This document shows positions 6,001 through 52,200 of a stretch of DNA of 64,000 nt, in pieces. Made by a program: the position numbers and the translations under genes. Origin of the DNA: Albula goreensis (lineage: Eukaryota > Chordata > Actinopteri > Albuliformes > Albulidae). The notes under the pieces were generated by a model. It was not told where the DNA came from. It ran no database searches and saw nothing but the letters and a program-made list of their open reading frames with translations. The stretch's first letter is position 1. The number at the start of each line of letters is the position of its first letter. The stretch covers positions 8,808,141 to 8,872,140 of the forward strand of contig CM040763.1 of NCBI GenBank assembly GCA_022829145.1, given 5' to 3'.

Positions 6001-7341
6001 CTACTTATTAATTACTACTTGGTCCTCTTATTAATTGCTATCATTTTCATTAATAATTCAAACATCTCTGTAAAACAGTGGTTTTTCTATGTAGGTTACC
6101 AACCAAATCTCAGGAGTGCACAGGGAATAAAATCTGGCATACTTCAAACACTGTCCTAGAGGAATGTGACAGTATGTCTATGTCACGCTCAAAATGGTAG
6201 GACCGCTTGGGCTTTTAATCTTATTCTACCTGTAAGCACATGGACACCTAAGCATGCCCCATGTAAGCAATCACTGCAAATGTTTATTATGCAGCCTTCT
6301 GTATACCGTACTATATACAGTTCATCTTTTTTTTTTTCTTACAGTGCATGTAACTGCACTACATATCTATATTTGTAAAGATGTGTATGACTGTACATGA
6401 GTAGCAATTTGTGTGAACAATGTCTGTTGTTGTTAAACCAGAAATAACCCAGACATTTAAATATCAGCTTGCTTTGTACTGGATAATGCTGAATGACCCG
6501 CACATGATTTCACTTGTGTTATACACATGGTTCCCTTTCTCTGGTTTATCAACATTAATCATGAGCATCATGAGCCTGCCATTGTGTAACATATTTATTA
6601 AATCAGTGTTTAGCCCATGAGCGTTTCTTATGTCAAACAGCATTCTACTAATCTAAATGATACAATTTAAAATAAATATGCCAACATTAAAAGATAGCAT
6701 GCATCTCCATGCGTGTAATGGAGTGCCCCTGTTCTTCTCCATTTCTCTTCAACTCACCTTCTAAAAATAGGAGCACCAGAGGAAAGCATTTTTAAAAAAA
6801 CAGGGCTGGATGCAAATGTCTGTGGGAATTTTCCTGTCAGAACGATGTTCTCACACGAATGAACACCCTTGCTTCAACCCAGTGACTAAAGCCTAAGATA
6901 ACCTACATTTCACGCTCTGACCAAAGAAGTAGGTTTCTAAACCTGTAAAATGGAGTACAAAAAATAGTAAACAGCTACACTACAGAGCAGCTACACTGAA
7001 GGAAGGGAGAAAATAAAAAGACATCTTTTATGGGGAAAAAAAAAAACAGAAAACACCAATTCAGTTTACAACAGATGCAACACAAATGGTATATAAGACA
7101 AATGTATACACATAAAAGCATTAACAGTCATAAATCTATGTCAGGGCACTGAGATATGCCTTGCGCGCTTGGATTAGGCGGGAACATCAGTTGAAGCGCT
7201 CTGCCACTGATACACCACTCAGGATCCAAACGGACACATAAATTATTTCAGACCCTTGCTAACTGCAACCACCACTGACACCCATCTGGGAGGGTAAGTA
7301 AGAGAGGGGGAAAACAGACACCATTTCTGGGCAGCACTGAC
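1..7341 (-). other. Intron-like sequence of MTUS1 3' half
   Basis: Mostly AT-rich non-coding sequence. I looked for the conserved ATIP coiled-coil exons on the minus strand and did not find them. Apart from the hydrophobic segment near 5004-5120 and a tRNA-like remnant near 7160-7225, nothing is supportable. Confidence 0.55.
5004..5120 (-). other. Candidate hydrophobic coding segment in MTUS1 3' intron
   Basis: On the minus strand a frame starting at ATG 5118-5120 reads MCMHGYVIFTFMYVTMDILV then LSVSWLCGVFVRGLW, to a TGA at 5004-5006. Codons in the first half end mostly in C or G, unlike the AT-rich sequence around, and the product would be a transmembrane helix. No strong phase-1 donor was found, so a splice link to MTUS1 cannot be shown. 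It may be another alternative first exon, a small independent ORF, or chance. Confidence 0.22.
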
Positions 7342-7462
7342 CTGTGTGGAACACCACTGTGCTCTTCTTGCATCCTGATAGCAGCTGAAGGTTTCTGAGC
7401 AAACCTTTTGCCGTCAGTTTCACGTGGATGTTGGACAGAGAGAATTTCGGAGACCATAACAT
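7342..7462 (-). CDS. MTUS1: MTUS1 alternative first coding exon, short isoform ATIP1
   Basis: ATG at 7460-7462 (G at -3) opens 40 codons plus one base, ending at ACAG|GTCAGT. The peptide begins [20 protein letters not shown] and ends KKSTVVFHT. From memory the human ATIP1 isoform starts MLLSPKFSLSTIHIRLTAKG and also reaches STVVFHT before the shared AVEKSRQ-type region, so this is a near residue-for-residue match. The amphipathic, basic, acid-free N-terminus fits the mitochondrial targeting reported for ATIP1. It leaves in phase 1, the same as the long-isoform exons, so both isoforms can splice to one shared set of coiled-coil exons. The open frame beyond the donor is intronic. Confidence 0.92.
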
Positions 7463-10400
7463 TGCTCAAAAGCGTTCAGGGAAGTGGAACACCCCCACCC
7501 GAAGAAAATAAAAATAACCAAAAGTAAACCCCCCCCTCCCCAAAAATAAAACTCAAAAAAGGTCCTTCTTGGGTGGACTACCGCATGCCAAGCACCGCAA
7601 GGTGCAACGTGCTACTGGATTGCCCTGTGTGGAATCCAATGAGAGGAGCACGGAGAAGAGGAGGGAAAATTAACAGCAGCCACAGCACAAAAACAACCCC
7701 CACCCCCCAACCCTTCACTTCACCATAACCGCTCTCCTCCACGGCAACAGAAGCGGATTCGCTGGTCCGACGGCGACGTCTTGGGTACGGAGCGAGATCT
7801 GGACAGATGTGACAGAGGCGCAGGCTAATCCGTACAGTCAAAGCGGCTCTTTGGCCATTCACACCGAGACAAAGCTCGACAGCATCTCCCTGAGCTAGCA
7901 GCAGAGAGAGAGAGGAGAGGAGAGGAGGGAGCGGGGAAGAGAGGGATGCAGGGAGCAGGGAGGAGGGGGGTGGGGTAGTGAGCGGAGATCCTGGAGTGGG
8001 CGGGCCCTGACGCTGGGCTAGTTCGCCATCTCTCTCTGCCCCTGACACACAGAGGAGTGAGAAAGGGAGGGAGGAAGAATGGGTGGTTCATGGCAAGGTT
8101 ATGTCTGATAATATGGAGTAAAAAGCAGCCATAATGCATGCCTGCTGCCGGGCCGCTGCCCTGATTATCCTCCATAGCAGATGTGGCATGCTGTCTCATC
8201 AATTCAATTAAAATCTCTAGAGGGACCGTGTGAATTAAAGTGTGGTGAATGCCACTGAGGAAAGAGGAGCTAGGGGAAAAAAAAAAAAAAAAACACAGGG
8301 GTTTCTGAATATTTATGAGTGACGACGCTCCACAAAATGGCTTACGTGAGACGGATCCAAATCAACCCCAAAGGCTGTCTGGTGGAGGGGGGAACAGAAC
8401 GATAAACAACCTGTTCTAATGAAGGATGCTTTTGCAAAGACTACATTAAACAAGTGGAGAGAAGGACAACCCAGAAAGGCTATCATATTATAAATCACAT
8501 GGTGGCCTTGAGTGTGAAAGCAGTATAAACTTGCAAATGGTGATTTTGCATTCCTTTTCAACAATACAGTAATGGCACACATTTAATCTCTGTAGTGTGT
8601 TGCATTGGTATAGCATGTTTTTGAAATAAAAAATAAAAAGAAATAAAAAATAAATAAATAAATAAATAAAACACTGAAAGTGTGACCACAACATTGAAGC
8701 TAGTAAAATGGGAGCAGGAGTGATTTTTTTTTCCATATAAATTTGATGAATTGATGTTTTTTTGGAATTTAACACACAGAGCTTTGTGCAGCAATCTCTA
8801 CACCAGAGTAAGCACTGTAAATGCATGCCCACAACACTTTGAGGTCAGGCTATTTACTACATGGGAGCTGCATAGCCAGAGAGGACACCCTGCCCCACTT
8901 TCTGACACAGATTACTCAGTCACTGCAACTCTTACTAGGGCAAATTCAATTTAGCTGCACAGAAATTAATATATGCAAACATGAACCGGTGCCAGATAGG
9001 AATTTATGAAAACAGGAGGTGTTTTTTTTTTAAAAATTGCAGCCTTTTAAATGCACGTTTAGAGACACTGGTGTTTGGGTAATATGTATAACTAGTAGTA
9101 TGAACATGCGTACATGCTGTATTAAACATACTTGTTAAAATTCCTTAATATCAGTCTCTTTTGTCAAAATGCAGTTGGATGTAATTCACTACAGCTGAAA
9201 GCCATGGTTTTTTTTTTCCCCCTTACCCCTTTTCTAATCACAATTTAGAATGCCCAGCTATATCACCATTCTGTGCTCATCACTACAACCTGCACAGCCA
9301 GTTCAGGAGAGCACACAGAAGAAGGCTTCACACTCTTCTGAAACACACCTCAGCGCATGCCAATTTTCCCACCACGGTACACAAGATCAGCTTGCATGAG
9401 TCAGATGAAGACACTTCATGCGTATCTGTGAGGAGGTGGATGGTGGGTGCCTGACTGTCCACTGAGGTGGGTGTTGCTGGAGGGTGGAAACACGTACATC
9501 CATCCCCCCAAGCTGGTGTAAAGTCAAAGACATGCTGTGCTGCAGTGCTGCTGACTACACTGGTCTGTACTGGTACTGCCCACATTCAATACCATTCTGT
9601 GTGGCCCATTAACACACTGCAACACTGTCTTTACAGGCCACTCTGTGGCCCACTAGTGAATAAAAAGACAGAAGACAAACAAAAAAAAGGGATAAAAGCA
9701 AGACTACTGTTTCTTATTGTCAAGACAAACTCTGTACACTGTAACGAAAGCATCATTTCTGCAGCATGGTATGCTACCAGATATTATGGAGTTAACCAGG
9801 AATAATAAAGAAATAAAGAAACAGTCCCTTGTAACTGAATGGAACACTGACTGCGCATAAATGCACTGGAACGCAGCATTTTGTAATACTGCAAACAATG
9901 GGGAACTCCTTCCCCAAACCGACGCCAGCACAGCATTGCTAACAGTGCCTTCTCCTGGGTTGTAATTATGTCTCAAGAGCAATTATGCTTACAGGAAGCA
10001 CATGTGGGGAAGGCAGAGAGCTGCTAAACTTTATGTGCCTTGAAAATCCCAGAGAAGGGCAGCCAGTGAAGGAAAGTGAATGTTTAAAATAGCCACTCAG
10101 AAAAAAATTCTGTACAGAGTTAAGTGGGAAAAGGGTGTTTGGACACACTATACAGAACCAAAAGCAGAAAAACCCCTGAGAGCAAGATTCAGTTCCAACT
10201 TACTTATCACAAAACACACACTTACTATTAAAATTCGGGGTGCTAGTTCAGTTCTTGGTCCAGACACCGATTTCAGGTGTTAATGATGACTTCCTCAGGA
10301 AAGTCTCTAAATTACTGAAATGTCAGTCCATATTAAATGATTAACTCATACTGCCAAGCCTCATCTTACTGATTTCGGTCAGATTTGAACAAAACTCAGG

Positions 10401-13400: not shown

Positions 13401-16400
13401 GATTAATAGCAATGGTGAAGGGCCATAAAAGGGTTACACAGGAAAAGAAATACCTCAGGGAAGCAGCAGCATTGTCCTCCAAATCTGTGTACATATACAA
13501 TGCATTTGCACAATTCACCCAGAGGCTACCAGCACACAGACAGCAGGGGTGGACAGTTTTTTGCACACCATGCTTTGACTTTAGCCAGTCTGAAACAAGG
13601 TCATGCCGACTGCGCAGCTCCTTACCTGCAGTCATGCCCTTCCCTTGCGGAGACTGGACTCTGTTCCGAACCCCCATGGCCTTGGTGATCGGGGATTTTC
13701 CCAAAAGCCTCGGAGCCGGGCCCCCTTGGGGACCTGGGCGAGGAGGCTTACTGTCTGGCTTGCAGACAGCTGGAGCAGAACCTGCAGGTGGAGCAGCAAA
13801 TGCAATAGACCAGTTTCACACAGGGTCACTCAAATTCAAGAGACAGGAGAATGACCTGCTACAACCTTCCTTTAGAGGCTGCACATTCTAATGGATATTT
13901 AGTTGTATTGTTTAGTTGTATTTATCATTAATTTATCCAAGAAACCCAATTCAGATTATCATCTTTTTTTCTCCAAGGGGGACCTGGTTATAGTGAAGAG
14001 AAAATGAAATACCACCACATTGGGTGTAAAAAAGTAACTATTCAGTTTATCAGATTTGTAAAACAACAGGCTAATATCTGAAATTCATATTTATTCCAGC
14101 ATCAGAAATTAAGAAATAACAGTAACCTTTTAAATGTCTGGGAATTGCAAGGACAAGTGCCTTGGATTTAAATGTACTTGTACAGCATGCATCAATTACA
14201 ACTCACAATCAGAATTTAATTGGTTAAGCTCAATTACCATTATACCATAATACCGTAGATTAAAGCCTTTAAGAATCTCCCGTCCTTTGGGAATCCTTTC
14301 ACTGCACACCAGAAATTCACTTTCATGTAAACAAGCAGCCCACATGTTCCCACATTACAGCCTTCACGCTGACACTCCATCACCAAGACAACTCTACTGA
14401 TCCTGCTGCTAAAAATCACCCTGCAAACATGTCTAAAACACCATAAAAATGACTAATGCTACCAAACTGAACAAGCGAGAGCATGCAGAAACACTCCTAG
14501 AGAGGCACAGCCCGGGGAAAGATTTCCCCATCATATGTTCATGTACTATTTGAGCCTGTATGAATAACAATGGCTTTGCTTCAAGCATTTCAAATGATGG
14601 CTGCACATTGCATTTCACAAGTACAGTCAGGCTGGACGCAGGCAAAAACGCACATGGACACAAAATACGACAAATTCTTCTAGTAAACTTACTTTTCCAT
14701 AGCTGCACTCTAGCTTTTCCGTTAAAAGCAGCCAACAAAGGAATGATACAGAAGCGATAGGATCCAATGAGCAGGCATGTCAACAGTGTGAGATCGCAAT
14801 GAGAGCCTGCGCTGCTGTGCGGAATTAGGGTGGAATTGATAAAAAGGTGAGCCGAAAACTCGGTTGAAGTGCAGCTCCGCAGTCCTCCAGGAGCAGACAT
14901 TGGGAAAAAAATAAATAAATCAGGGACTGGGAGAGAAAATAAAGCAGTAACAAAACCACTGTGAGGGCACCTCAGCCATATTCCTGCGTGCTCCCCCTCT
15001 GCCTCCACTTAGTGAAGTGGAGTGGAACAAACCCACCCTCCCAGACATCCGCATGTGGGGAACAAACACAAAGGCAGCGTGCCCCTCGGCCAATCACAGA
15101 ACGGCACACTGTTGAAGATGCTGGAAGAAAGAGGCCCATTGTGTCATGGGCTGCCTCCTCAGGAACCAGACAGAATCTGGAGCGAGGGCCTGCTACACCC
15201 TCAGCGTCCCCCTCTGAAGCACTGCACACAGTGACTGAGGCCGAGTCAGCCCAGTCCAGCACCATGATCTTGTAATTACTCTTTGAAGTAAGCAAATTAT
15301 TGAATTAATGCAATATTTCTTTCCAGGCCTGACATAAACCATCGGGCCTCAGACATGTCTAAGAGGCTTAGTCTTAAGCATAGACGAAAAAGCAAGATTT
15401 TGTGCCGCAAATCTTCTGATCTTCTGAAAACTCTGAGTGTCCTAAATTCCCTACATTCAAAACGGTCTGAAGGGAAATAACATCCTTTACCAGTGAAACA
15501 CCTTCCAGACTTTATCATTTTACTCTTCAGTGACACTCATTTAATAAAACTAATCTCAGTTTTCATATGCAGGTATTAAGAAAAGAGGGAAGAACACATC
15601 CAAAACATTGACTATTTTGCAATCATATTCATGTAAACATCATAGATAGCAAACCAAAATTCGAAATTCCAGTGCAAATGTAGTGGCACATCTGTTCTCT
15701 GGAAACACATATCCTATATCTGTAGAACAATTAGGGGAGAGAAATGATTTAAAAAAAAAAAAAATAGAAAATGAAAATATTCATTTTTCAGAGGCAGAGT
15801 TAAAACCTGGGGAATTAATTCTGAGGATCAGTTCAACAAAATCAATTTGTCTTGAAATGTAGGTCGCGCGCACGCGATAATCTCTGTTTACATTAGCCAG
15901 CTGTGACCTCTGAACTGACATGCGGAATCATCGCTGTGCCACTGAGGCAGATAGAGAGGTCTGCATGGCGAGCATGGCGGGTAGGAGTTTAAAAACAGCC
16001 ACGGTACATGAGAAGACTGGGGGAATTAATGCGGCAGCACAGAGCGCGGTGATGAATAGGCCGTCTCGAGCCAGGGAATAACACGCAAGGTGTGAGCGAC
16101 GGAGGCATGAGTCAGGGTGGCCCTGTGCTGGAGGAGGAAAAGGCACTCCCTCTGACTACGAGAAACTAAAGCCTGATCCACATGCACCATCACGCTCCAC
16201 ACCCACCTACAGCCGTAGGACACCACCCAAGATCACACTCGTGTGAAAGTCAAGGTAGTGGACAAAAATCTGCTTAGCACACAGCTTCAGCACAAACTCC
16301 GTAATGAGCACAGTGGACACATATGCATGCACATTCATGAGAATTCTCATGCTGACACTACTCTATGAAAGCAGTTCCACACAGTATGTTGTGTGACGAT

Positions 16401-19400
16401 GCCATTTCTCCTCATGGCAAAGCATCGGCATAACTGATGACATCTTCAGAGTTAAAAAAAAAAAAACAAAACAAAAAAAAAAAAGCAGACAAACTGCGGT
16501 ATGTTCTGAACCCTGTCATCCGGAACCATGTGTTTGTGTGCTCTTGTACTACCTCAAACCACAATCTACAAAAACAGACACAAAACCACCGGAGAAATTT
16601 AAATATCTAGCAAGCGTAGAAAATCAACAAAGATTAAAAAGATAAACCTATTTGCTCAACTCATGCAGAATAATAGTATAAAAAGAAAATGAACTCACAT
16701 GAGAGATTATTTCAATATTTGCATTACAAATCTGTTTAGAAATATGCTTCAAAGAAATTCTTAGAAAGACACGCCTGCTTTTAGCATTATTATTAGATTT
16801 GCGATCACATTTAAAATTCACGTTCCAATCGCTGTCGCAGTCAGTCAATACTACCATACCCAGATCTTAAAATGTATTCACCAAAATGCATTGCTTCTAT
16901 TTTTATGAATTATATTAATACTGTAAGCATAGTAATATGCAGTAGGTACATTGTAATGGGTTTTCTATAACATAAAAATCAACGTGGCAATATATTGCAC
17001 TTGGGGTGTTAAGCATGCTGCCTCTTAATTGTTTTTACTGATCTGACCCCTGAAACAGGACCTCTCCTAGACTAGATGCATGAAAGTTTAAATAAATGAC
17101 AAAACTGTGTTTAAACTGAGGATGAACTCCTTTCTTTTTAGGGACAGAAATGTCACTGTCAGAAATCCTGTCAGGTTATTAATTGTGTTATTAATGAATT
17201 TTTTGGGGGAAAATGTGAGGAACACTGTTTAAAAACCAAAGACTGATACACACATTTGATGCGTACCACAATGTTTTGAGCATTTGAATTTTGAATATCC
17301 AGTTTTAACACAAGAACAGAAGAACATTTCAGGTCGTTTGACAAAACACCCTTCCTTACCTCGTGCACTAGCATTGCCTGCACCAGGTTGGCTTTGAATG
17401 CTGGGTAGGGGTGAAGGTTTGGCGCTCTCGCCCTGATCCTGTGCCTTAACAGGCAGCTTGGAGCCTGCTGCAGTGTGAGTCACAGCCAGTCCTGTGGCCA
17501 AGGTGGGTTTGGCGACAGTGACAATGACGGCCGCGACAGATGGCCTCTCTGTCAGCCGCATTTTCTGATTACCTGCAAAAACACCATTATATCACAAATG
17601 GGTCACAAAAACATGGCATCAAAAACCTATGTTTATTATCCACAGCCACTCCTGTCATTTCACTGCTGAAGGGTAAAATATAGGCTGATTAACAAAACCG
17701 CACTTTTGTAGCTTTAAATCATGCACAGAATCCTTAAAGCAAGTCTGCAACCACACAAGCTTAGACATGCTCCTGATCAAGCCTGCACCGGCTCTCACTT
17801 ACGCAACCTTCCTACTACTGGAATAGTGTGAGGCCCAATGAGATCAATTACAAGGTGGAAGGATAAAGGCGATCACTGTTGCTAGGTTGGCAAATGATGG
17901 TGTTGTTGGGGATAAAGGACATTCCTCCTGTGCCCCATGGGCCAGCTGGAGAAACATCCAAGGCCTGTGAACACCGAGGTAGTTTCCTGCCGGGAGGGAC
18001 CTCAGTTGACACAGCTTTAGAAGCCGGGGCCGCTATGCACTGGAAATCCCTGTGGTTAGCGAAATTAGCTTTATTTGGAATCGAATAGAGCTAAGAGGTT
18101 TGTTGGCACAATCTACGCTGGTAGTAGAATCTCAGAGTCTGAGGTGCTGAACTGGGAACAGCTTGCACCTTCATGCAAAGCAAACAGGATTTATGGCCAG
18201 TACTATTCAAATCAAAATGGTCTGTAAATGTGACATTGGCCGAGCCCAGATTTACCACCTCGCATCTATGTGTTGATTTCCAATCTTCACCGCTTGTGAA
18301 TTACATATGAAGAGCATGGGTATTAGCAAATATGAGCAAGATGCTTTTCCAAGACAAACCAGGCCATAATTAATTAGTTACGTATATTAAGCATGGGCTT
18401 GGAAAAAAAGTAACAATCAGGAATAGAAATCTAAATGCAAAGCTTTAAATTTGTTCCCAGCATTGATCAGGCTTTTCTTAATGACTGCATGATAATCTCT
18501 AATCACCACCAGGATAGGGTAATCCCATTAAAACTGTCTAGATGTCCGGCATTTTCCAAAGCAGATAAAGGCTGATGCCAGGTGCTCCAAAAATGAGAGC
18601 AGTTTACTGGTTTCAGGATCCTCCTACTCTCCTGTTGTGGGAGATCAGCTCAAAGACGTTGTGTTCTGCTGGAGAAGTGCTGCAGCAAACTTTACAACAT
18701 CTCTTTTCCCTGTGTTTTCCATGACCACAGTCAATTTCTGATTGGAGTAAAGACCTGGCCCGATGACTCCTTCCTTAACACTGCCTAGAGGATAAGCAAT
18801 GCAAAGGAAGTGTTTATCAACATGTGCCAAAGGGAGAGTTTGGGGTGAAGGAGGTATCCGTGTCTGACACATACGCTTAGTTCATCAGGGACAGGAAGGC
18901 TGTAATGTGCAGATTAGCAAGACCTTTATACACATACTGCCCTCCCATGGCATGATGCAGTACTGCACATTAACAGGAATGCCTGAGAAACTGCCTGCAG
19001 GTATCTATGTTTGACAGAGATCATAATAGAAAATTCAAATAACTGTGGAATGCATAGGGTCTGTTGTGAAATCATATCTTTGCCTGGCTGAGGGTGGAGG
19101 CTTTAAAGTCATTTTTTTTTTGTACATGGAGGACTTGCTGTGATGCAGTAACTTCTGAAAATGAGCCAACAGCTTAAGAGATATTCTATAATGGTCCTAA
19201 GAAAGCTTTGCATTTGCCCAGTCTGGTTTCAGTTTGCACGTCAACCATTTTCTGGTTCTGAACAGACATTTTCCTCTAATACAGCATATATTATAGCTTG
19301 TCTTCTATACATGTATTTTGAATGCAAAAAAAAAAAAAAAAAAACTCTCTTGTATAAGCCAACCTAGTGGGTGTCACAGTAACAATGAAAACAGAGCCCA

Positions 19401-22400
19401 TTTGAACTCAGGACTCTGCTACATGGGTTTCAAGCCAACTTTGAACAATTTGCGATTACTAACAAAAAGGAAACAGTGCCCACAATTGTATGAGAAGGAT
19501 TTGGCATTGGATTTGGAAAATGATAGCAGGCAGAACCCCCTGGCCCCCAAAGCGAGACTGGAAAGACCAAAGCACATCCATTAGGAGAAAAGGGTTTGGG
19601 TTAAAGGGCAGCGAGAAGGCTGGAAGTTTCAGAGACCAGGCTGCTATTTAGAGCTGAATGCTGCTGTAGCTCAGTGCCTTAACCTTTCAGTCTTAGAAGC
19701 TTGCCTCTCCTCTCCTCTCACAGCCAGCACACATTGGTTTCAATTTCCAGAAACAAGCACTTCTTTGTATAGGTAATTTAATGTGGAAAAAATAAAGCCA
19801 TCTGTTCATTACGCTGAGCCTCTGGGCTGGAGTAAACGTAAAAAAAAAAAAAACTAAGTTTGATCTTGCTGGCAGCTCTTCAGGCAAATACTGAATCATT
19901 TTAAACATTTTAATCTAAAAAAAAAAAAAAAACTAATGATTTTACCTTTTCAAAAATGCATTCCTCTGAAGAACAGAGCACTCTGAGCTGCATTACAACA
20001 TGCGGCGTAATAGAAGTATCGGTTACATAACTCCTACACAGCACTGCATCAAGACAGATATCCCATTCAACATCACTGCTGCATTGAGAGTAAATAACAG
20101 GAGACAACTGTGAAGACCCTGACATAACTTTCACACAATCATTCCTTGCTGGTGTTTGTAAAAATGAACAGCATCGGTTTGCAGAGCCTGTTTAAAGGCA
20201 GAGTTCTGGAATGTGGGAGGAATGCGTTTCTCTGCTGCATCTACGGTCTCCCTGCAGCGCACACTCGGCAGCTAGCATGGAACAGTGTAAACACAAACCG
20301 TGTAAAAAAAAAAAAAAAAAAAAAAAAGTGAAGAAAAAAAAATACAAAAACAAGCAGATCTAAGATTAAAGGTGAAAGGCGGAAAAAGGTGACAGAACTA
20401 TGTGAGAACAATTAAAGTTACGTGGAAGGAAAAATAACCTGAAACACAAACTAGAAACCCTGAGCGGAGGAGCTGGAGATAACAGAAAATGCCTGCTAAT
20501 GAGAAGACGCAGCACACAAAGAAGAAAACTGGTTGGAGGTGAACTGGAATTCTGGCTGAGGCGGCATGTACTCACCAGGAGTGGGGATATTCTTGGTCCT
20601 TGAAGCAGACATGCTGCCAGAGGTGCGGCCATCTTTGCTGGAAGTGCCCAGCTTCAGCTTTGCTACAGGAGGTGGCAGTCTAAGGTTTGCAGTTGGAGTT
20701 TGTGAGGATGAGGCGCTTTTCGCTCTGCCGGGGGATGGCCGCTGTCCAAGCCTGCCTCTGCTCCCATCTGACGGCCCTCCTGCCACGGCCAGCTTAGATG
20801 ACACCGACTGCAAGTAGTAGTCTTTCTTACTCACAGAGTCCCACGCCAGCAGCCTCAAGTCCACATTCCCAACTCTGACTATGGTGTTGGCCATAACAGA
20901 GCTTGGAAACGTGAAAAGGGGGGGAAAAGCTCACGCAAGCTCTGAATCAACTTGCTATTGTACTACATTCCCCTTGGGATACTGGCGGTTCCAGCCAAGT
21001 TTTTTTTTTCCCCTCTTCTATAAACACTCTGTGCACATGGAGTATATTTGTGGGCGGCTAGCACAGTGTCGTCGTATTACTCATAGTTTCAAAGGAGCAA
21101 TTAAAAAGGCAGGGAAAAGTATCAAATGTTTTCTGTTGGTAGGACATTTTTCCCCACCAAAAAAACTTCTAAATCTATGCCTTGTAAACTCATCAACTGT
21201 TTTTCTAAGTTGGTTTAATTACAAAAAAATAAAATGTTTTACTGTTCCACTTCATTTACAATATTTCAGGTTTCCTCTGTAAGGAAGCCAAAATCATGTA
21301 GGGCTTTAAAACAGTTTAAAAAGTTGGCTAAAAGCACCACCCGAGAAGTCAGACAAATGAATTCAAAATTCTCCACTACAATGTGGAATTACATTGCTAT
21401 ATTGAAAAACAATTTGCTTGTAAATGATTCATCATTTACACTAGAAATTGCTCTTGTATCTTCAACTGGGTAGAATTATATCACAAAACCATGCAAAATA
21501 AGCAGATGAAGAAAAATGACACAAATTTGCAACAGATGCCTAGACGGAGTAATGTGTGAACTGACAAAAGGCTATTTTTAAAAACACAACAGAGCTCACT
21601 GATCTGTCACGTAGCTGTCAGTCAATACATGTGTTCAGAAATAATCAACATTGAAGAAGATTAAAGATTTTGCAAATTTAAGAATTAACTTCTTATGTAT
21701 GGTCAGATCATTTTTGATCTTCTGAAGTTACCAGAACATTAAAGCTTCACTTTCACTCCAAAGGATAAAGTCATTAAAATTTTGATAAATGAAAAGGTAA
21801 GCTATTTAACAAAGTCAAATCAACAGTGCTAATATCAGTTAAATCATTCCTACCTCCACATGAACTGAATCGATCTTCAAACACAACTCCTGACGGTATT
21901 TGAAGACCAGAGGTCAATTGAAAGCACAGCAAATCAATATAAAGGCACAAACATGTACTTACAACAGAATGGCCTTCTTGATTCTCTGCAGTGAGTTCCA
22001 CTGTGGTCACTTTTCCAGTTGAATCTTCCTTCGGGGCTCTATATGTACCACCCTGTACAGCGTCTGTCTTTACAGGCTTATTCTGACAGTTCTTGTCAGG
22101 TGGTGCCGGGACAGCAATGAAGGTTGTGTTATTGATTGAGGAGCTGCCAGGGGTTGAACCAATGTCACTGACCACCATCTGCCTCTGCGGAGAGGAAACC
22201 ATGGCATCCCGAGGGGTTTTGACAGTTAAAGCCGGGTCACACTCAGAAACCCTACGTGAGCCTGGCTTTGGAGCGACCCCTTTGAGCAGATTTGAAGAGC
22301 TGCGTCTCTTATTCCCATCACCAGTAACTGCTTCCATTTTTCTCTGGGCAGGCCTTGGAGTATTGACAGGGGTGCCCTGATTAGCCAGAGAGGATTTACC

Positions 22401-23798
22401 AGGTGTGGACATTACTCTGCCCGAGTTAGGCACTTTTAACGGGGTGGCAGTCCGTGAGGTGACCTTTGGCTTGATGTTCTTGAAGTCTGGCTGGGGAAAC
22501 TTCTTGACATCCATTCTGGTGTGCTTGCTTGGAGTGGACACGGGTGTCCTGGAAACAGCTGTGGCTGTTGAGATGGGTGTGCCTGGCTGCCTTTTGACAG
22601 CACGAAGAGCAGGGCTCCCCAAATCTCCTCTGTCATGCTGATATGGAGACTCAGTCAAGGATGGAATGGAGAATGTCTTATTCTGCAAACCCTGTACCGG
22701 AGTGGAGGTCTGCGCATTGCCACTCGTGTCCGATTCCTCAGATCCAAGTAACAAAACGGTCGTCCCATGGATAGGAGTACACATCTCTGAGCTACACTGC
22801 AGTGGCTCCACTTCAATGTAGGTTTTACCCAATGGCCCTGGACCAGCGCTTTCACACTCAGTGGGGACACAAAATGGATCTGCTGATGCCACAGGTGGAG
22901 GACTTTCCTCCTGCATTTCACATGGCAGACTAAGTAAACTTTCCTCAGCAGCTAAAACTCTTGTGCACTGGAAGGAAAACTGAAGCCTGTTGTGTTGGGA
23001 GTCCATATCGTCCTCATCTGCAACACCAGTGTGCTGTTTTTCTTCGAGGCCTTCGCAAACATCAGGCAAAACGATCGACAACGTGCCTTTTTCAGAGGGC
23101 ACAGAAGAAGGGCTGAGAGTGTCTCCAACCAGAGAGACGCTGAGCAGCTTTTCACTTTCGGACTCGTCCAGGCTAAAGCTGTTTTTCCTCATCACCATCT
23201 CCCCATAGCTCAGGGACACAGTGGAGTCTCGTCCATCATCGCAGGACCCACGGGGAGAGGGGTCGGGATGTCCTTCGCTCCCCTCCGTCATGGCGCAGTC
23301 TGGAGAGGTGTCAGAGCTCCTGTCGCTGCCCGCAATGCTGCAGCGGCCCAGGGTGTCCCTGCATTCCTGAAGATTGGTTATGACCAGATCCATGTTCTCA
23401 TTCCAGTTGTCTGTCTTGGTGTCCAAGTATATGGATGTGGCATCCTCACTAGACTGTAGGCTCGATGTTCTTTCATCACTGCAATGATGCAAGTCATCGA
23501 AAGGGGTGGGGATGAAGGGCTGGTTGGCAAGGACATTGCCAATGGTGACATCCTCGGCAGGTGCCTCCTTGCTCAGACAGCAGTCCAGCATCTCCACGTC
23601 GGCAGGGCTGTCACGGCTGCTGCTGCTCAGACTGCTGATGCTCCGCAAGGAGTCTGGAGATGAGGATTTGTTGCCATTACAGGAGACTTTGTTGCCGTTT
23701 TGGTCACCCGGGTCCAGCAGAAGGTGCATCCCATGAGCTGGGACTTCTGTGTTCTTGACTCCAACTCGGTTTTGTGCGCCTGACTTCCGTACACTCAT
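7342..23798 (-). CDS. MTUS1: MTUS1 (ATIP) gene, coding part visible here, incomplete at the C-terminus
   Basis: MTUS1 encodes the ATIP family: microtubule- and mitochondria-associated tumour suppressor proteins that bind the angiotensin II AT2 receptor through a shared C-terminal coiled coil. Coding exons read on the minus strand are 21963-23798, 20576-20901, 17360-17572, 13626-13781 and 11554-11661 for the long isoform, plus the alternative first exon 7342-7462 for the short isoform. Identification rests on the ATIP1-type first exon (near-identical to the mammalian N-terminus as I remember it), the [13 protein letters not shown] stretch of the long isoform, and the neighbouring FGL1 and PCM1. 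Downstream of 7342 no coiled-coil exon could be recognised, so the 3' end of the gene is off the left edge. The paralogue MTUS2 is the main alternative, but synteny argues for MTUS1. One junction (21963 to 20901) does not keep frame and probably hides a small exon. Confidence 0.9.
7463..8240 (-). promoter_or_regulatory. MTUS1: Presumed internal promoter of the MTUS1 short isoform
   Basis: Immediately upstream (minus strand) of the ATIP1-type ATG, the base composition changes from AT-rich to GC-rich with several CpGs around 7740-7860 and a purine-rich GA/GGA tract at 7903-7980. The region has no convincing coding frame of its own. Position and composition suggest the promoter and 5'UTR of the short isoform; no TATA box or start site can be fixed by eye. 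Confidence 0.45.
7903..7980. repeat. GA/GGA-rich purine tract
   Basis: Long purine-rich tract on the plus strand within the presumed short-isoform promoter of MTUS1. Confidence 0.85.
8625..8670. repeat. (AAAT)n-like simple repeat
   Basis: A-rich stretch ending in five to six AAAT units, in MTUS1 intronic sequence. Confidence 0.9.
11554..11661 (-). CDS. MTUS1: MTUS1 internal coding exon, phase 1-1
   Basis: The exon is 108 nt with acceptor GACCCCAG and donor CCACCAG|GTATGT. It is entered and left in phase 1. It encodes [18 protein letters not shown] followed by a Arg/Thr/Pro-rich end (ATGPPG). It is the last long-isoform exon I can recognise before the ATIP1-type first exon; the C-terminal coiled-coil exons should follow to the left of the window. 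Confidence 0.75.
13626..13781 (-). CDS. MTUS1: MTUS1 internal coding exon, phase 1-1
   Basis: The exon is 156 nt with acceptor CCACCTGCAG and donor ACTGCAG|GTAAGG. It is entered and left in phase 1. The product is Gly/Pro/Lys/Arg-rich ([20 protein letters not shown], then [13 protein letters not shown]), typical of a disordered basic microtubule-binding region. The surrounding longer open frames on both strands (13340-13891 plus and others) are shadows of this GC-rich exon. Confidence 0.78.
14693..14900 (-). CDS. Candidate further MTUS1 alternative first coding exon with hydrophobic segment
   Basis: The ATG at 14898-14900 opens 69 codons plus one base, ending at a strong donor TGGAAAA|GTAAGT in phase 1, exactly the phase used at the other MTUS1 junctions. 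The peptide ends with a hydrophobic stretch (about residues 42-58, [20 protein letters not shown]) followed by a basic [10 protein letters not shown] tail. A GC-rich block with CpGs (about 14960-15270) lies just upstream. A membrane-anchored ATIP isoform has been described in mammals, but I do not remember its sequence, so the link is inference. Confidence 0.35.
17360..17572 (-). CDS. MTUS1: MTUS1 internal coding exon, phase 1-1
   Basis: The exon is 213 nt with acceptor TTTTTGCAG and donor CGAG|GTAAGG. It is entered and left in phase 1, so it could be skipped without shifting frame. It encodes Gly then [12 protein letters not shown], a hydrophobic/Thr-rich middle and a Pro/Ser/Gln-rich end ([15 protein letters not shown]). 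It is low-complexity and probably disordered, in the middle region of the long isoform. No catalytic or folded domain is seen. Confidence 0.78.
20306..20341. repeat. Poly-A tract
   Basis: About 22 As, a GTG interruption, then more As, in an MTUS1 intron. Similar shorter A runs lie at 16453-16484, 19326-19343 and 24027-24043. Confidence 0.85.
20576..20901 (-). CDS. MTUS1: MTUS1 internal coding exon (basic Ser/Pro-rich)
   Basis: The acceptor is a C/T-rich tract followed by TTTCCAAG; the donor is CTCCTG|GTGAGT with the intron starting at 20575. The exon is 326 nt. Read in the only open frame that also matches the next exon, it begins with the last base of a split codon and ends with one base (G). 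The product contains [16 protein letters not shown], then a basic Ser/Arg/Pro-rich stretch ending [13 protein letters not shown] split Gly codon (G|GT) joins it cleanly to exon 17360-17572. Its entry phase does not fit the large upstream exon (which ends in phase 0), implying at least one unrecognised exon between them. Confidence 0.75.
21963..23798 (-). CDS. MTUS1: MTUS1 long-isoform (ATIP3-type) large first coding exon
   Basis: This exon gives 612 codons from the ATG at 23796-23798 to a GTAAGT donor (intron begins 21962), ending in phase 0 after GHSV. The start has A at -3 and is the first long-frame ATG after four short uORFs. The protein is Ser/Pro/Thr-rich and probably mostly disordered: a Ser cluster near residues 45-65, an acidic stretch in the middle, and a basic, TP-motif-rich second half (residues about 395-530) of the kind that binds microtubules. 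Around residues 433-447 the [14 protein letters not shown] segment resembles a conserved block of mammalian ATIP3 (YPRPNFKNVKAKV in human, from memory). The rest of the N-terminus is poorly conserved, which is normal for this protein. The open frame continues past the donor to 21774, but that extension is intronic in character. Confidence 0.88.
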
Positions 23799-46143: not shown

Positions 46144-46242
46144 ATGGCAACAGGTGGGGCGCCATTTGACTGTGCTGATGAGCAAGAGCTGCCCAACTGG
46201 GCCCTAGGCAATGGAAGTCTGGATGACAGACTGAACAACATG
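46144..46242 (+). CDS. PCM1: PCM1 coding exon 1
   Basis: The exon has 33 codons from ATG 46144 in an optimal context (AAG before, G after). It encodes MATGGAPFDCADEQELPNWA and ends SLDDRLNNM, like human MATGGGPFED...DDRLNNM. The exon itself starts at 46128 after CCATTAG, giving 16 nt of leader. Donor ATG|GTAGGG, phase 0. Confidence 0.96.
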
Positions 46243-49200
46243 GTAGGGTGAAAAAGAAAATACATTCAACAGGTTGCATATTGAATCATTTTTAATCCAT
46301 TACAGTCTAAGATATATATCTTTAATGGAAAGAACAAAGTACTACAGTGTTTTGGAATTGACAAAAACATCTTACCGAAAGTACTACAGTGTTTTGGAAT
46401 TGACAAAAACATCTTACCGAACATTACCTCCTAATTTTAATGTACTTAGAAACAGGTGTATTGATTTCCTGATATATTATTTGTCATTACTCATAACTTA
46501 TTTAAATGTCTATCGTGTTCACAGTATGTATGTTCTTTTGGTTTTCTTTTAGGAATGGGGTATGTCACAGAAGAAAGCCAATAGATCATCAGAAAAAAAC
46601 AAGAAGAAGTTTGGGACAGCAGTGGAGAGCAGGCTCACGAACGACATCTCCCCAGAGTCGACTCCAGGGGCCGGGCGCAGACGAGCACGTACCCCCCACT
46701 CCTTCTCCCATGTGAAATATGCCACGCAAATGTCTGCCCCAGAGCAAGCCGAGCTGGACAGACTCAAGCAAAAGATAAACTTCAGTGATTTGGATGAGGT
46801 AGGTACTAACATGGGTGCTCAACACAACAGTGGCATACTCAGCAAAAATGGAATTCTAAGAATGATGAGAAATTATAATACTTCTTGCAGTTGGTGTCTT
46901 CTTGATTTGATTTCAGTTTGAGGGCTGTTATGTTCGTAGTTTTGATTCCGCTGATTACCCTTTCAGATAGCTGATTTGTAGGTTTAGCTATATTACAATA
47001 AACAGTGGTTCTCAAACTTGGGTTGATAAAAAGACCTTAAATATTGTATGAGTGTTGGCTGCTTATGATGTTTTCCCATACATTTTTTTTTTTTTTTACA
47101 GAGAAGCATTGGAAGTGATTCTCAAGGCCGGGTTACTGCTGCAAATAACCAAAGGCAGTTAGCAGAAAACAAGAAAGCCTTTAACTTTCTGCCTCTACAC
47201 GTCAATACTAATAAAAGCAAAGAGCTAGCTGCTTCAGCTTCTGGCTGTGAAGACACTAAAAAACAGCCCACTGGTAGGGATACCTTTGCTGGTCCCCAAA
47301 GGCAAGGCAAGGATGCCTTTCAGATTGAATGGACACCTTTCCTTATGGATGGGGCAGGAGAACCAGGCATTGATAGCAGTCAGGTAATTGCTTTTTAAGT
47401 GTATTTGAAGCAATTCGATTTATTATACAGTGTCATAGATGTTAAGGACTGCATTGTACCTATTTCATAGCTTGGTGTATTGTTTGGAAATGTATATAAA
47501 AGATCTACATAAGCATTTGATGTATGTGCAGATCTTAGTCATCAATCCCTGTGCTTTCTGCAGTCTCCTGTGTTGTAAAATGTCTGTATCCTGTGCCTAT
47601 TGCCCATGTCTGTGCTCTGCTGTATACTCTTCCCCAGGTTGTCAGCAAGCTTGTTCAAATAAGGGAGTATATTGCCATGGCCTGCTGCATGAGGGATGAC
47701 CTGGTGGAAAAAAATGATATCCCAGCCAATGTTGAGCATTTAACACAGCTAATTGATCATCTAAAGGAGCAGGAAAAATCCTGCTTGAAATTTCTACAAA
47801 AGATGTTGGTTAGTATGCAGTGATTATTCCTCTGTCATTATGATTCAGAGTGAAAGTTTTCTCAACATTGCTATATGTGCAGTAGCTAACCCCATATGTA
47901 TTTTTGAAGTGCCTGCCCAATGAAAGTAATGACATTTCAGAATGACTTCAATTTCCGATTATTGTGGATGTCTGTAAAGAAGATGGAGGTTAGTCAGTGG
48001 TAAAGGTGAAAGCAATGCAGCTGGCTGGACCTTTTATTGAAGACAGGGTCTGAAGCTGTTCTACACAAAGTTGTCTATATGCCGAAGTGCTAGTATACTG
48101 ATGACAGATGGATGCTGGGTCATTAATTTTAACTGATTCAGCTAGCTGCTCTCTCTAGACACATGTTTTGTGTGAGAGTGTGGTTATTAATGCCCTTATA
48201 CCCTCAATGATCCCTGCAGGCCAGAGAAAACGATGAAGATGATGTCCGCACCATAGACTCCGCTGTGGGATCGGGCTCTGTAGCTGAAAGCACATCCCTG
48301 AATATAGAGGTGCACTCTGAAGCCTCAGATGGCACAGTAAGTAAAATGATCACATTTATTCAAGTCACACTGTTAATTATAATGCTGATCTTTTTATAAT
48401 TCAAATGAGTTTTATTTTGTATATTTGACTGACTTTTCAAAGCAAAGACATAAGAAAAGGAATTAATTCATTGTTGTTGTATATTTAAAAATATAATTTT
48501 GAGACCTTTTAAATCGTACCAGGGGAACTTTTTCTGCCGTGTTATTTTAAAAACGAAAGTTTCATGCTGTGTCATTTATTGCCTTTAGGACTTAAAGCTT
48601 AATAATATTGTTAACAGTTGAAGTATTATTATAAAATGATGAGTGGTTGTCCCTAATCATAATTTACTTAAACTTACCAAAGGACATCTCTCAAATTGTG
48701 AGATATCGACCACGCATTGAGGACAATCTAGGGAAGTCAGCGTCCCCAGAGCAGGGTTCTCACTTTGATGTTACTGCAGCTCCAGCCCTCAATGACATGG
48801 GGGTATGGCCTGATAAGATGGTTGGAAAGGTACCTTCAAACCTGCATTCAATCCTTATTCAGCAATCTCCACTCTTTCGGTTGCTTTTCCTTCATGCAGC
48901 ATAATCAGACTCGCCATCTCTTCTGCAGTACCTGCCGAAAACGGGGATTAATTGTCTGAAATGTATTAGCATTGCGGTGCTTCTCCGTCTTTTGCTTTTC
49001 CTGTGGAATGCTGAAAATGGAGAAGCTGATTCATTTAAAAGCTTTTCCTCCTGATGCTTCCATTATTGCCTTTTTAAACATTTTCTTTGACCAGTTTGCC
49101 ATCCAGTTTGATCAGTGCATTTGCTGTAGCATAGGTGAGCCAAAAGTAATTTTTCACAGTAACCATATTGGCATCTTAATCAGCAAAAATACATGAAAGA

Positions 49201-52200
49201 ATGTTGATCAATTTTTTAAAAATGGGTTTGAGATGCATAGTTTAGTGATGGGAGAAGAAAGTATTTGACACAGTGCCTCCTTTTATTAAGCAGAACAAAT
49301 ATTTTAAATATTGATGATAAGAAATGTGTTTAAAAGTTACATTTCTATTAATAAGAACATACTCTTTGAAGTTAGGGTTGACATGGCAAGTACAAATTCA
49401 GAATAATTTCATCATTCAGATTGTGGAAAATCCTTTTGCATATGTATTCAAATCATACAGACAAACTTTAGGGACACAACCATGTTTTTGTCAAGAGTGT
49501 AGAAACAGCAAGTCAGACTTCATAGGAAAGAAAAACACTTTGCACATGCTGTTTGTGGGAGCTGACCCCTCTGTCCTGCTGGTCCTCAGGGCCGAGATCC
49601 ACACGGGGAGGCGAAGGAGGAGCTGGAGAATCTGCGCAAACAGCACGACCTGCTGAAGCGCATGCTGCAGCAGCAGGAGCAGCTGCGGGCTCTGCAGGGG
49701 AGGCAGGCCGCACTTCTGGCCATGCAGCAGAAAGCCGAGCAGGCCATCGCAGTCATGGATGACACGGGTGAGTTACCTCTGGAGAATTAATGTAATTAGG
49801 ATCGCTTTCAAACACTTAACCTACTCAGGCTTAGCAAAAGAAGACCAAGGGGGAATCAAGTGAGTTAAATTCATTCAAGGATTTATAACAAATTATAAGT
49901 ACAAAAGTTTTTTTCAGATTGAGTTTGGTCAGCAGAATAAGGGGAGATAGATGGAAATTAGTTAAAGAAAAATTGATAACTAATATCAAAAGTATTGTTC
50001 CACAGAGGGTTGTTAATTGTTGGTGCAACTTGTTATGTCATGTAGTACAGGCAGAAACATGCCTTTTGTCTTATTTCATAATACCAGGCTATTACAACTA
50101 TTTAGGATTATTGTTTTTCTCTCTAGTTGTTTATGTAAATTATTGAAAGATTTGTTTTTATATATAATGTCATTACTGAAGAATGTGAAGATTCTTATTT
50201 CTTTTAATGTATTCTATGAAGAAAGTAGAACAATGATGACAATAAATGCTATTAATGGACTACTTGGCTAATTCTTTTAGCTTACTGTCTAGGTTTTTGA
50301 TACGGAGATGCAATTGATAATTTAATTTTTGAATGATTGTTTTACTATTATGTGCATAATCGTGTGTTTGTGGTCTTTTGCCTTGGTACATGCAGTCGTC
50401 ACTGAAACAACAGGCAGTGTTTCTGGTATCAGCATCACTTCTGAACTAAACGATGAGTTGAACGACTTAATTCAGCGATTCCACAACCAGCTTCATGACT
50501 CACAGGTAGAAGGGAAACATTTTTACTAACCCCAGAATATTGTGTATTATGAAAAGTGCAATGGATGTAACCTAACAGTTACTTTAAGATTGTGCATTGT
50601 GTAAAAGGTTATTGTAGTAATTGCACAGAAATGTATGATTACCTGAACATGATATAATCTGAAACCTTCTGCCAGGAGTTGCAGAAAGGTGGAAATTGTC
50701 ATCACACTGGGAGTAATTAGCTGTAATGAACCTGCTTGCTGTCTTAACTGCTGTTTCAATAAAAAAATAATTAGCCTTGAGCATCATCCTGTGAGGACAG
50801 TTTTTATGTACGTTTCCTCAGGATGTGTTTCTTGTGTATTACACAGACGAAGGCAGTCCCTGATAACAGGAGGCAGGCAGAGAGCCTCTCCCTCACCAGA
50901 GAGGTGTCCAGGAGCAGGGGAGCCCATGGCTGTGAGCCCGCCGGTCGGCCTAGCGCCCAAGTCACCAAGCTCCAGGAGCTCCAGGACAAGAAGCAAACCA
51001 TGGACAAAATACTGCATGAGCTCCACACATTAAGAGACCACACTTTAAACAACAACTCCTGTGAGTACTACCTGTCACAACTGTATTCATATTCATTTTG
51101 GTTTGACACTAGAACTTTATTTGTACCTTTATTGTCTAGCATAGTGGTAGGTGAGGATGGCCCCACCCGTATCTGCATTTCATCTCTCCTCTCTCTCTCC
51201 TATCTCTCCAACTGTACAATTGAAAACATTAATCTCTGTGATTTGAAATGTAACAGTCATGTGGATGTGTAAAGCATAACACAGCTGGGAAACTTCTGCT
51301 TTTATTTGCCAATATCTTTGCAGTGATAGGAATTATTACACATCAGTGTGACCTTTACATCTTAAATCATGGAGATGAATGTTTTTAATAGTGATATGTG
51401 GGGATATATGTAGAAAGCAGTAAAACTGCTACCTACATTGTGCTGCTCTGCCCCAGAAATAGGGCCCATCGTGCACCTAAATTAAATATTTTACAGTGAT
51501 ACAATTCACAATTTAATTGTTAATGGTATATACATATATATAGCCAATTAGCTAAGTTAGTCAGGCTCAGCGTTGGAAACAAAAACCTTCCATGATCACA
51601 GCCTCCTACCTCTGGTGTTTAGTCTGGATATGGTCTTTTCTGGCTGAGTGCGAGTGAGTGTTTGGATTCATCCCTCAGGTCAGCGAGTCCAGGCCTCGTC
51701 TCAGAGAAGTGCCTCGGGGTCAGCACTCAATAGAGTGGCCAACGGCCGCCCCGGAGCCAGACTGGACATCACCTCTGTACCCCATGCCGAAGCAGAGAAC
51801 GTCCACTCTGCTGAGAAACTCAGGTGCTTCCCCGCAGCCTCTCACCTCTCACAGAATAGGGCAAGGAAGAGGAGAAAGAAAATCAACTGCCTCTCTATAA
51901 GTTAGCCTGTCTTTGCCAGGCCAATAACCATGAGTAGTGTGGCTCGTTCCAGTTTGACATCATTCTTCCCAGGTTCCGGGGATTTACATTAGTCAACTTC
52001 TTTTTCTGACAAATCACAAATCTTGGAATGTGCGCTTTGAAATGGTAAACAGCCTTTGTCAACCAAATCGCTAGTAGAAATCTGCTTCCTCCAACAAGAT
52101 TGTAAGAAGCCTAGGCCAGGATAGATAACAGCTGTCCAGCTGCTCATTCAGAGATTGAATGTCTGGACTTGAGACTGGTCTTTCTAGCTGGCTGTGCTGT

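What the first reader, a model, noticed from the sequence alone, without database searches (positions are those of the whole stretch)
7342..7462. The ATIP1 alternative first exon of MTUS1 is preserved almost residue for residue in a fish
The 40-residue peptide differs from the human ATIP1 N-terminus, as remembered, mainly by conservative changes, while the long-isoform N-terminus has diverged heavily. Strong constraint on a short isoform-specific exon implies an old internal promoter and an important function for this N-terminus (mitochondrial targeting in mammals).
Basis: partly seen in the sequence, partly recalled or inferred. Interest (0 to 1): 0.7.

Follow-up and report, generated by a model that had tools for sequence, protein, structure and literature searches.

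The report
Fish ATIP1 first exon of MTUS1
This is the fish version of a known start exon of the MTUS1 gene, kept in two fish gene copies, which points to an old internal promoter and an important but still unclear job for this short protein end.

Summary
Window 7462-7342 (minus strand) is a 40-codon first exon ending in a clean phase-1 donor. "Almost residue for residue" is somewhat strong. The order PDGFRL-MTUS1-FGL1-PCM1 supports orthology.

The same genome holds a second MTUS1 on C18, beside a second PCM1. Its ATIP1 exon is 35/40 identical, dN 0.076, below eight shared-exon segments (0.161-0.264); long-isoform exons are 31-39% identical where they align. The dN/dS ratio (0.139) is not the lowest: two of eight segments are lower. 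Both copies splice in phase to the shared exon and share two collinear upstream elements, so an internal promoter is likely. In human that promoter is already published (PMC2706840).

"Mitochondrial targeting" is not supported as stated: reported locations conflict. A side result: an ATIP4-like first exon (14900-14693) is also kept in both copies.

This is an orthologue of a known exon; no transcript data were available.

The parts
7342..7462 (-). ATIP1-type alternative first coding exon: 40 codons (7462-7343) plus one base of the junction codon (7342)
   Evidence: second copy with ATG at C18:17045380; in-phase joining to the shared exon in both copies
7336..7341 (-). 5' splice donor GTCAGT after exon-final CAG
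   Evidence: Direct reading; the second copy has CAG|GTCTGT
7463..8006 (-). Probable 5' leader and core promoter: GC- and CpG-richer stretch with up to four short upstream ATG frames; start site not mapped
   Evidence: Windows at 7351-7950 are 3 of the 5 CpG-island-like 500-bp windows among 1270 in the window; uORFs; the last 150 nt have no unusual RNA fold, z = 0.17
7993..8006 (-). GGCCCGCCCACTCC, GC-box followed by a C/T-rich tract, shared with the second copy at -432 from its ATG (here -544)
   Evidence: weak alone (8 of 200 shuffles share 14 or more bases) but collinear with the next element
8296..8319 (-). CTCATAAATATTCAGAAACCCCTG, 23 of 24 bases shared with the second copy at -711 from its ATG (here -857)
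   Evidence: E 1.8e-6; 0 of 200 dinucleotide shuffles reach 23/24, maximum 20
13626..13781 (-). Internal exon of the long isoform; phase 1 at both ends, would join the same shared acceptor as the ATIP1 exon
   Evidence: Splice signals read; 39% identical to the second copy, E 2.2e-4
14693..14900 (-). ATIP4-like alternative first exon: 69 codons plus one base, hydrophobic span about residues 37-59 (with one arginine inside), one N-glycosylation sequon NST at residue 22
   Evidence: 57 of 69 residues identical in the second copy, dN/dS 0.088; resembles the in-silico description of human ATIP4
17360..17572 (-). Probable internal exon of the long isoform, phase 1
   Evidence: Splice signals read; only a chance-level match in the second copy (E 1.0)
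20576..20900 (-). Internal exon of the long isoform (5' limit uncertain)
   Evidence: 36% identical to the second copy, E 1.9e-9
21963..23798 (-). Large coding exon of the long (ATIP3-type) isoform
   Evidence: Open frame and donor; weak match to recalled human ATIP3 and no significant match in the second copy

Best explanation
The segment is the first coding exon of the ATIP1-type short isoform of a teleost MTUS1 gene. An internal promoter about 0.5-0.9 kb upstream starts a transcript whose first exon carries the ATG and 40 codons. It splices in phase 1 to the shared coiled-coil exons that begin about 8.8 kb downstream, outside the window. Shown here: the exon, its orthology (with recalled human probes), an in-phase acceptor, and protein-level constraint in two copies. 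Supported but inferred: the internal promoter (about 0.8). Inferred: the 40 residues act as an address or docking segment, basic and acid-free with a possible helix at 9-30, that brings the shared AT2-binding coiled coil to a membrane or partner (about 0.6). Mitochondria specifically as one such address: about 0.3.
For: Exon and match to recalled human ATIP1. Length agrees with published figures. Order PDGFRL-MTUS1-FGL1-PCM1 found with recalled human proteins. Only two significant places in 932 Mb. The second copy sits beside a second PCM1 and is 35/40 identical, dN 0.076, dN/dS 0.139. Pooled nonsynonymous differences 0.072 against 0.179 in 8 shared-exon segments, Fisher p = 0.006 on rounded counts; 0 of 264 40-residue windows of those segments reach 35/40. 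Identity stops near the ATG and donor: 20/60 and 22/60 in the flanks. Shared acceptor codon V in both copies. Shared upstream elements. CpG-richer stretch at both exons. The human promoter P3 in front of exon 8 is active in 4 of 4 cell lines and was called conserved in 11 of 11 orthologous loci.
Against: No transcript, CAGE or RACE data for this fish. The human sequences used as probes are recalled, not fetched. By dN/dS the exon is not the most constrained: 2 of the 8 shared segments are lower (0.094 and 0.112, both with dS above 2, so unreliable), as is the ATIP4-like exon (0.088). Forty codons is a small sample, examined because it looked conserved. CpG enrichment is modest: the 500 bp upstream has observed/expected 0.59 here and 0.57 in the second copy, just under 0.6. 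The helix prediction has mean pLDDT 65 from one sequence and the helical moment is not above shuffles. Two papers give cytosol as the location set by ATIP1's amino-terminal motifs, against a membrane address.
Confidence: 0.85

Rival explanations
1. The 40 residues are a classical cleavable mitochondrial presequence, so ATIP1 is imported into mitochondria and the conservation reflects that.
For: No D or E in 40 residues here or in recalled human ATIP1, nor in the second copy (sequence); basic and hydroxyl-rich; a low-confidence helix at 9-30. Reports of mitochondrial ATIP1. The second copy keeps 3 arginines.
Against: Helical moment not above composition shuffles (1645 of 5000 here, 1305 of 5000 for recalled human). 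Only 1 arginine here against 5 in recalled human. Protease K on crude mitochondria removes ATIP1 together with MFN1/2 and TOMM20, which places it outside. Cardiomyocyte study finds it at the plasma membrane.
Confidence: 0.12
2. Membrane docking without cleavage: the segment binds a lipid surface or a partner (for example MFN2, AT2 at the cell membrane, or Golgi), and the address differs between cell types.
For: Outer mitochondrial membrane and MFN2 co-precipitation; plasma membrane; Golgi; positive charge kept at three of the four changed arginines.
Against: No study in the passages that I read deletes or swaps this N-terminus; the shared C-terminus alone could give the membrane association through AT2; three papers call ATIP1 cytosolic.
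Confidence: 0.5
3. The exon is conserved mainly as DNA or RNA (promoter-proximal element or splicing signal), not as peptide.
For: Synonymous divergence is somewhat lower than in the shared segments (pS 0.39 against 0.52), and at DNA level this exon is the most identical of 10 alignable stretches.
Against: The synonymous difference is not significant (p = 0.33); synonymous sites differ at 11.5 of 29.7 against 6.5 of 90.3 nonsynonymous, and identity drops to chance right outside the exon.
Confidence: 0.05
4. A chance open frame with no transcript.
For: No expression data were available.
Against: E = 1.3e-14 to the recalled human peptide, retention with few nonsynonymous changes in two copies, valid donor and in-phase acceptor in both.
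Confidence: 0.02

Closest known systems
Human MTUS1 transcript variant 5 (ATIP1), first exon 8 with promoter P3 (PMC2706840)
   Same: Short isoform-specific first coding exon inside MTUS1, about 40 residues, just upstream of the shared exons, with its own promoter
   Different: Fish sequence differs at 9 of 40 residues from recalled human (second copy at 12 of 40) and exists in two copies; promoter not tested by reporter
Human MTUS1 transcript variant 4 (ATIP4), first exon 5 with promoter P2
   Same: The second fish first exon at 14900-14693 has a short N-terminus followed by a hydrophobic span, as described for ATIP4 (36 residues, then 24 hydrophobic)
   Different: Human ATIP4 letters were not available, so the likeness is by position, phase and topology only; the fish span has an arginine inside
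N-terminal mitochondrial presequences
   Same: Basic, without acidic residues
   Different: Poor in arginine in this copy, amphipathicity not above shuffles, reports place ATIP1 on the outside of mitochondria or elsewhere

Membership tests
ATIP1 isoform of MTUS1 | Isoform-specific N-terminus of about 40 residues matching human ATIP1 | tested here: met
   31/40, E 1.3e-14, recalled human sequence; length agrees with papers
ATIP1 isoform of MTUS1 | Splices in phase to the shared coiled-coil exons | tested here: met
   Phase-1 donor and acceptor with open frame in both copies; splicing itself not observed
ATIP1 isoform of MTUS1 | Lies in the orthologous gene | tested here: met
   PDGFRL-MTUS1-FGL1-PCM1 order by tblastn of recalled human proteins; shared exons including the C-terminal end at 80.6%
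ATIP1 isoform of MTUS1 | Transcript starts at an internal promoter | not testable with these tools
   Only indirect: CpG-richer stretch and two shared upstream elements
Cleavable mitochondrial presequence | Arginine-rich amphipathic helix without acidic residues | tested here: inconclusive
   No acidic residues; 1 arginine here, 3 in the second copy; moment not above shuffles; helix 9-30 at low confidence
Cleavable mitochondrial presequence | Import and cleavage | not testable with these tools
   Published protease data in human cells argue for the outer surface
CpG-island promoter | 500 bp with GC over 0.5 and observed/expected CpG over 0.6 | tested here: inconclusive
   3 windows at 7351-7950 and one stretch at C18:17045000-17045500 pass narrowly; the fixed 500 bp upstream of each exon falls just below
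ATIP4 isoform of MTUS1 | First exon with about 36 residues then a 24-residue hydrophobic span, joining downstream exons | tested here: inconclusive
   Kyte-Doolittle 1.93 at residues 39-57 (arginine at 49 inside) and phase-1 joining; no membrane predictor was run and identity to human ATIP4 was not tested

The most novel reading that the evidence does not exclude
The evolutionarily stable products of MTUS1 are its short isoforms: the ATIP1 and ATIP4 first exons, each with its own internal promoter, change less in protein sequence than the shared coiled coil and far less than the long isoform. The ATIP1 peptide is then a conserved, uncleaved membrane or partner docking signal older than the teleost genome duplication, not a mitochondrial import sequence.
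Probability: 0.35. Interest if true: 0.5.

Novelty: new member of a known kind. Interest (0 to 1): 0.35.

Why it matters
MTUS1 is mostly studied as a tumour suppressor, and where ATIP1 sits in the cell is disputed. The comparison shows which of the measured parts of the protein changes least between the two fish copies: the 40 residues that only ATIP1 has. A peptide that small is an easy object for swap and deletion tests that could settle the location dispute. It also suggests that the three-start layout of MTUS1 reported in human (long, ATIP4, ATIP1) is present in this fish.

Tried and rejected
Classical mitochondrial presequence as the main reading: tested by composition, helical moment against 5000 shuffles and arginine content; not supported.

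A third copy or an MTUS2-like exon: the genome search with the 40 residues gave two significant places and one at E = 1.83 on C20; the C20 place is an unremarkable open frame. MTUS-family C-terminal exons exist on C2, C11 and C6, but one search reported no ATIP1-type exon on those contigs.

CpG stretch at 15801-16350 as an ATIP4 promoter: it lies about 0.9 kb upstream of the ATIP4-like exon, but the second copy has no such stretch near its own ATIP4-like exon, so it is left open.

A structured 5' leader: no, z = 0.17 for the last 150 nt. Rfam (whole window), Pfam and PDB searches gave nothing for the exon. My first scan for an ATIP4 exon listed its open frame but for a different hydrophobic stretch, so I did not recognise it; it came out of the comparison of the two copies.

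Chance-level matches of recalled human ATIP3 elsewhere in the window were discarded. One shared stretch alignable at DNA level (73.6%) is not among the eight segments of the dN table, which were chosen by matches to recalled human ATIP1. In one search my join of the 17-kb and 13-kb exons left out the base at 17360 and read out of frame; phases are taken from the sequences. Paper searches on mitofusin or mitochondrial targeting, MTUS2/TIP150 and ATBP50/Golgi added nothing that I used.

Full report
What was claimed.

The exon. The minus strand at 7462-7343 reads 40 codons from an [43 protein letters not shown]; base 7342 is a single G before the donor GTCAGT. Of nine differences, five score above zero in BLOSUM62, one scores zero and three are negative. 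I could not confirm the human letters in a database; a full-text search for four fragments found 0 papers. A check that does not need them: residues 422-436 are given as the C-terminal peptide of human ATIP1 (passage, PMC12071853) and the isoforms share 395 C-terminal residues (passage, PMC3566609), leaving 41, which equals 40 codons plus the junction codon.

The gene. Recalled human FGL1 and PCM1 match the window at 42278-38472 (minus) and 46144-56832 (plus), and recalled PDGFRL matches downstream on C23. The order PDGFRL-MTUS1-FGL1-PCM1 is the human 8p22 order as I recall it. Recalled ATIP1 matches nine places on C23: this exon and eight below the window start, including the C-terminal end at 80.6%. 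The acceptor that the ATIP1 exon would use is at C23:8806677, 1464 bases outside the window, and restores the frame as V-DKNKQK, parallel to recalled human V-EKSRQK. The exon at 13781-13626 also ends in phase 1 and would use the same acceptor.

A second copy in the same genome. After several unanswered tries, the window's own genome (932 Mb, 208 contigs) was searched with 259 bases around the exon. It gave two places: the window and C18:17045379-17045500, 85% identical over the exon only. A protein search gave the same two plus one at E = 1.83 that looks like chance. C18 also holds PCM1 and one FGL1-like exon match (41%) next to this MTUS1 copy, as expected for a pair from the teleost genome duplication; that dating is inference.

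Constraint. Between the two copies the ATIP1 exon is 35/40 identical, with dN 0.076, dS 0.546 and ratio 0.139 (Nei-Gojobori). The second copy is 28/40 identical to recalled human. Eight shared-exon segments, found by their match to recalled human ATIP1 and trimmed to their BLAST-aligned cores (303 residues), all have higher dN, 0.161 to 0.264; the trimming makes the contrast conservative. One more shared stretch that aligns at DNA level was not measured. Pooled, nonsynonymous differences are 0.072 against 0.179 (Fisher p = 0.006, rounded counts), and none of 264 windows of 40 residues in those segments reaches 35 identities, the maximum being 33. Against this: by dN/dS the exon is not the lowest, since two of the eight segments have 0.094 and 0.112, both with dS above 2 and so unreliable; synonymous differences are 0.39 against 0.52, not significant; the exon is short and was examined because it looked conserved. 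Long-isoform exons: the large exon has no significant match in the fetched C18 stretch (30.6% over 49 residues, E = 0.53), two others 36% and 39%, and the 17-kb exon none. At DNA level the ATIP1 exon is the most identical of the 10 stretches that blastn aligned between the two loci (85.3%). Sixty bases on either side are at chance, 20/60 and 22/60.

The promoter. CpG-island-like windows are rare here: 5 of 1270 windows, 3 of them at 7351-7950. In C18, one of three such stretches in 130 kb is at the ATIP1 exon. Of the other exons checked, 1 of 12 here and 1 of 9 in C18 fall in such stretches. The effect is modest, since fixed 500-bp upstream windows are just below 0.6 in both. More telling, the two 1.5-kb upstream regions share, in the same order, a 24-base element (23/24; window 8319-8296; 0 of 200 shuffles reach this) and a 14-base GC-box (window 8006-7993; 8 of 200 shuffles share 14 or more bases) at -857 and -544 here and -711 and -432 in C18. 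If the GC-box is part of the core promoter, transcription starts upstream of 7700 and the leader holds up to four short upstream ATG frames. In human, 5' RACE and reporter tests already showed a promoter (P3) in front of exon 8 for variant 5, active in 4 of 4 cell lines, described as conserved in 11 of 11 orthologous loci (PMC2706840, first of two parts of the text read). That variant 5 is ATIP1 is my reading of that paper's remark on AT2 interaction. So the old internal promoter is a known idea, extended here to fish.

What the N-terminus does. Literature passages disagree: outer mitochondrial membrane with MFN2 (PMC11077360, section 18 and passages), mitochondria or Golgi (PMC3763398, passages), cytosol, with membrane and nuclear pools in neurons (PMC3566609, passages), plasma membrane in cardiomyocytes in contrast to mitochondria (PMC12071853, passages). 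Two papers say that amino-terminal motifs set the location of the isoforms and give cytosol for ATIP1 (PMC4393571 and PMC5445029, passages). None of the passages that I read maps a mitochondrial address to residues 1-40. The peptide has no acidic residues; of five arginines in recalled human, three are lysine and one glutamine here, while the second copy has three arginines; its helical moment is not above shuffles (1645 of 5000); a one-sequence model predicts a helix at 9-30 with mean pLDDT 65. Twenty-seven of 40 positions are identical in both fish copies and recalled human, including the run [10 protein letters not shown]. I favour an uncleaved docking segment for a membrane or partner (about 0.5-0.6), with mitochondrial import unlikely (about 0.12) and mitochondria as one of the addresses at about 0.3.

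A second alternative first exon. The comparison of the two copies also exposed window 14900-14693, in a stretch 77.7% identical over 224 aligned bases. It encodes 69 residues plus one base, 57 of 69 identical, dN 0.125, dN/dS 0.088, with a hydrophobic span (hydropathy 1.93 at residues 39-57, one arginine inside), a conserved NST sequon at residue 22, and a phase-1 donor that joins the 13781 exon in frame. Human ATIP4 is described, from its sequence alone, as 36 residues and then 24 hydrophobic residues (passage), and its first exon 5 lies upstream of exon 8. Position, phase and topology fit ATIP4; the sequence match to human was not tested.

Novelty. A search for MTUS1, zebrafish and ATIP found 4 papers, none about fish MTUS1 judging by titles, abstract openings and one set of passages. 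A search for mtus1a, mtus1b or mtus1 found 480 papers, of which I saw ten listed, none on fish. Fish isoform annotations probably exist in public databases, which I could not search. The finding is an orthologue of a known exon with useful evidence on constraint, not a new kind of thing.

Noticed in passing
window 14900-14693 (minus); second copy ATG at C18:17040351: ATIP4-like alternative first exon with a hydrophobic span and a conserved N-glycosylation sequon, kept in both MTUS1 copies (57/69 identical, dN/dS 0.088).
   Followed up: partly
window 42278-38472 (minus) and 46144-56832 (plus): FGL1 and PCM1 orthologues (recalled human probes); gene order around MTUS1 is as in human 8p22 as recalled.
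   Followed up: yes
C18:16965000-17094999: Second MTUS1 beside a second PCM1; only one FGL1-like exon match (41%) in between, perhaps a remnant or a diverged gene.
   Followed up: partly
window 15801-16350: The only other CpG-island-like stretch in the window, about 0.9 kb upstream of the ATIP4-like exon; possible promoter, not mirrored in the second copy.
   Followed up: partly
window 7463-7885 (minus): Four short upstream ATG frames (8, 6, 3 and 2 residues) in the probable ATIP1 leader; could dampen translation.
   Followed up: no
C2:39743475, C11:22269719, C6:41083050: Further MTUS-family C-terminal exon matches (E 3.1e-7, 7.1e-7, 0.005, the last with an internal TGA), perhaps MTUS2-type copies.
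   Followed up: partly
window 46336-46421: Two perfect tandem copies of a 42-base unit, between the first two PCM1 exon matches.
   Followed up: no
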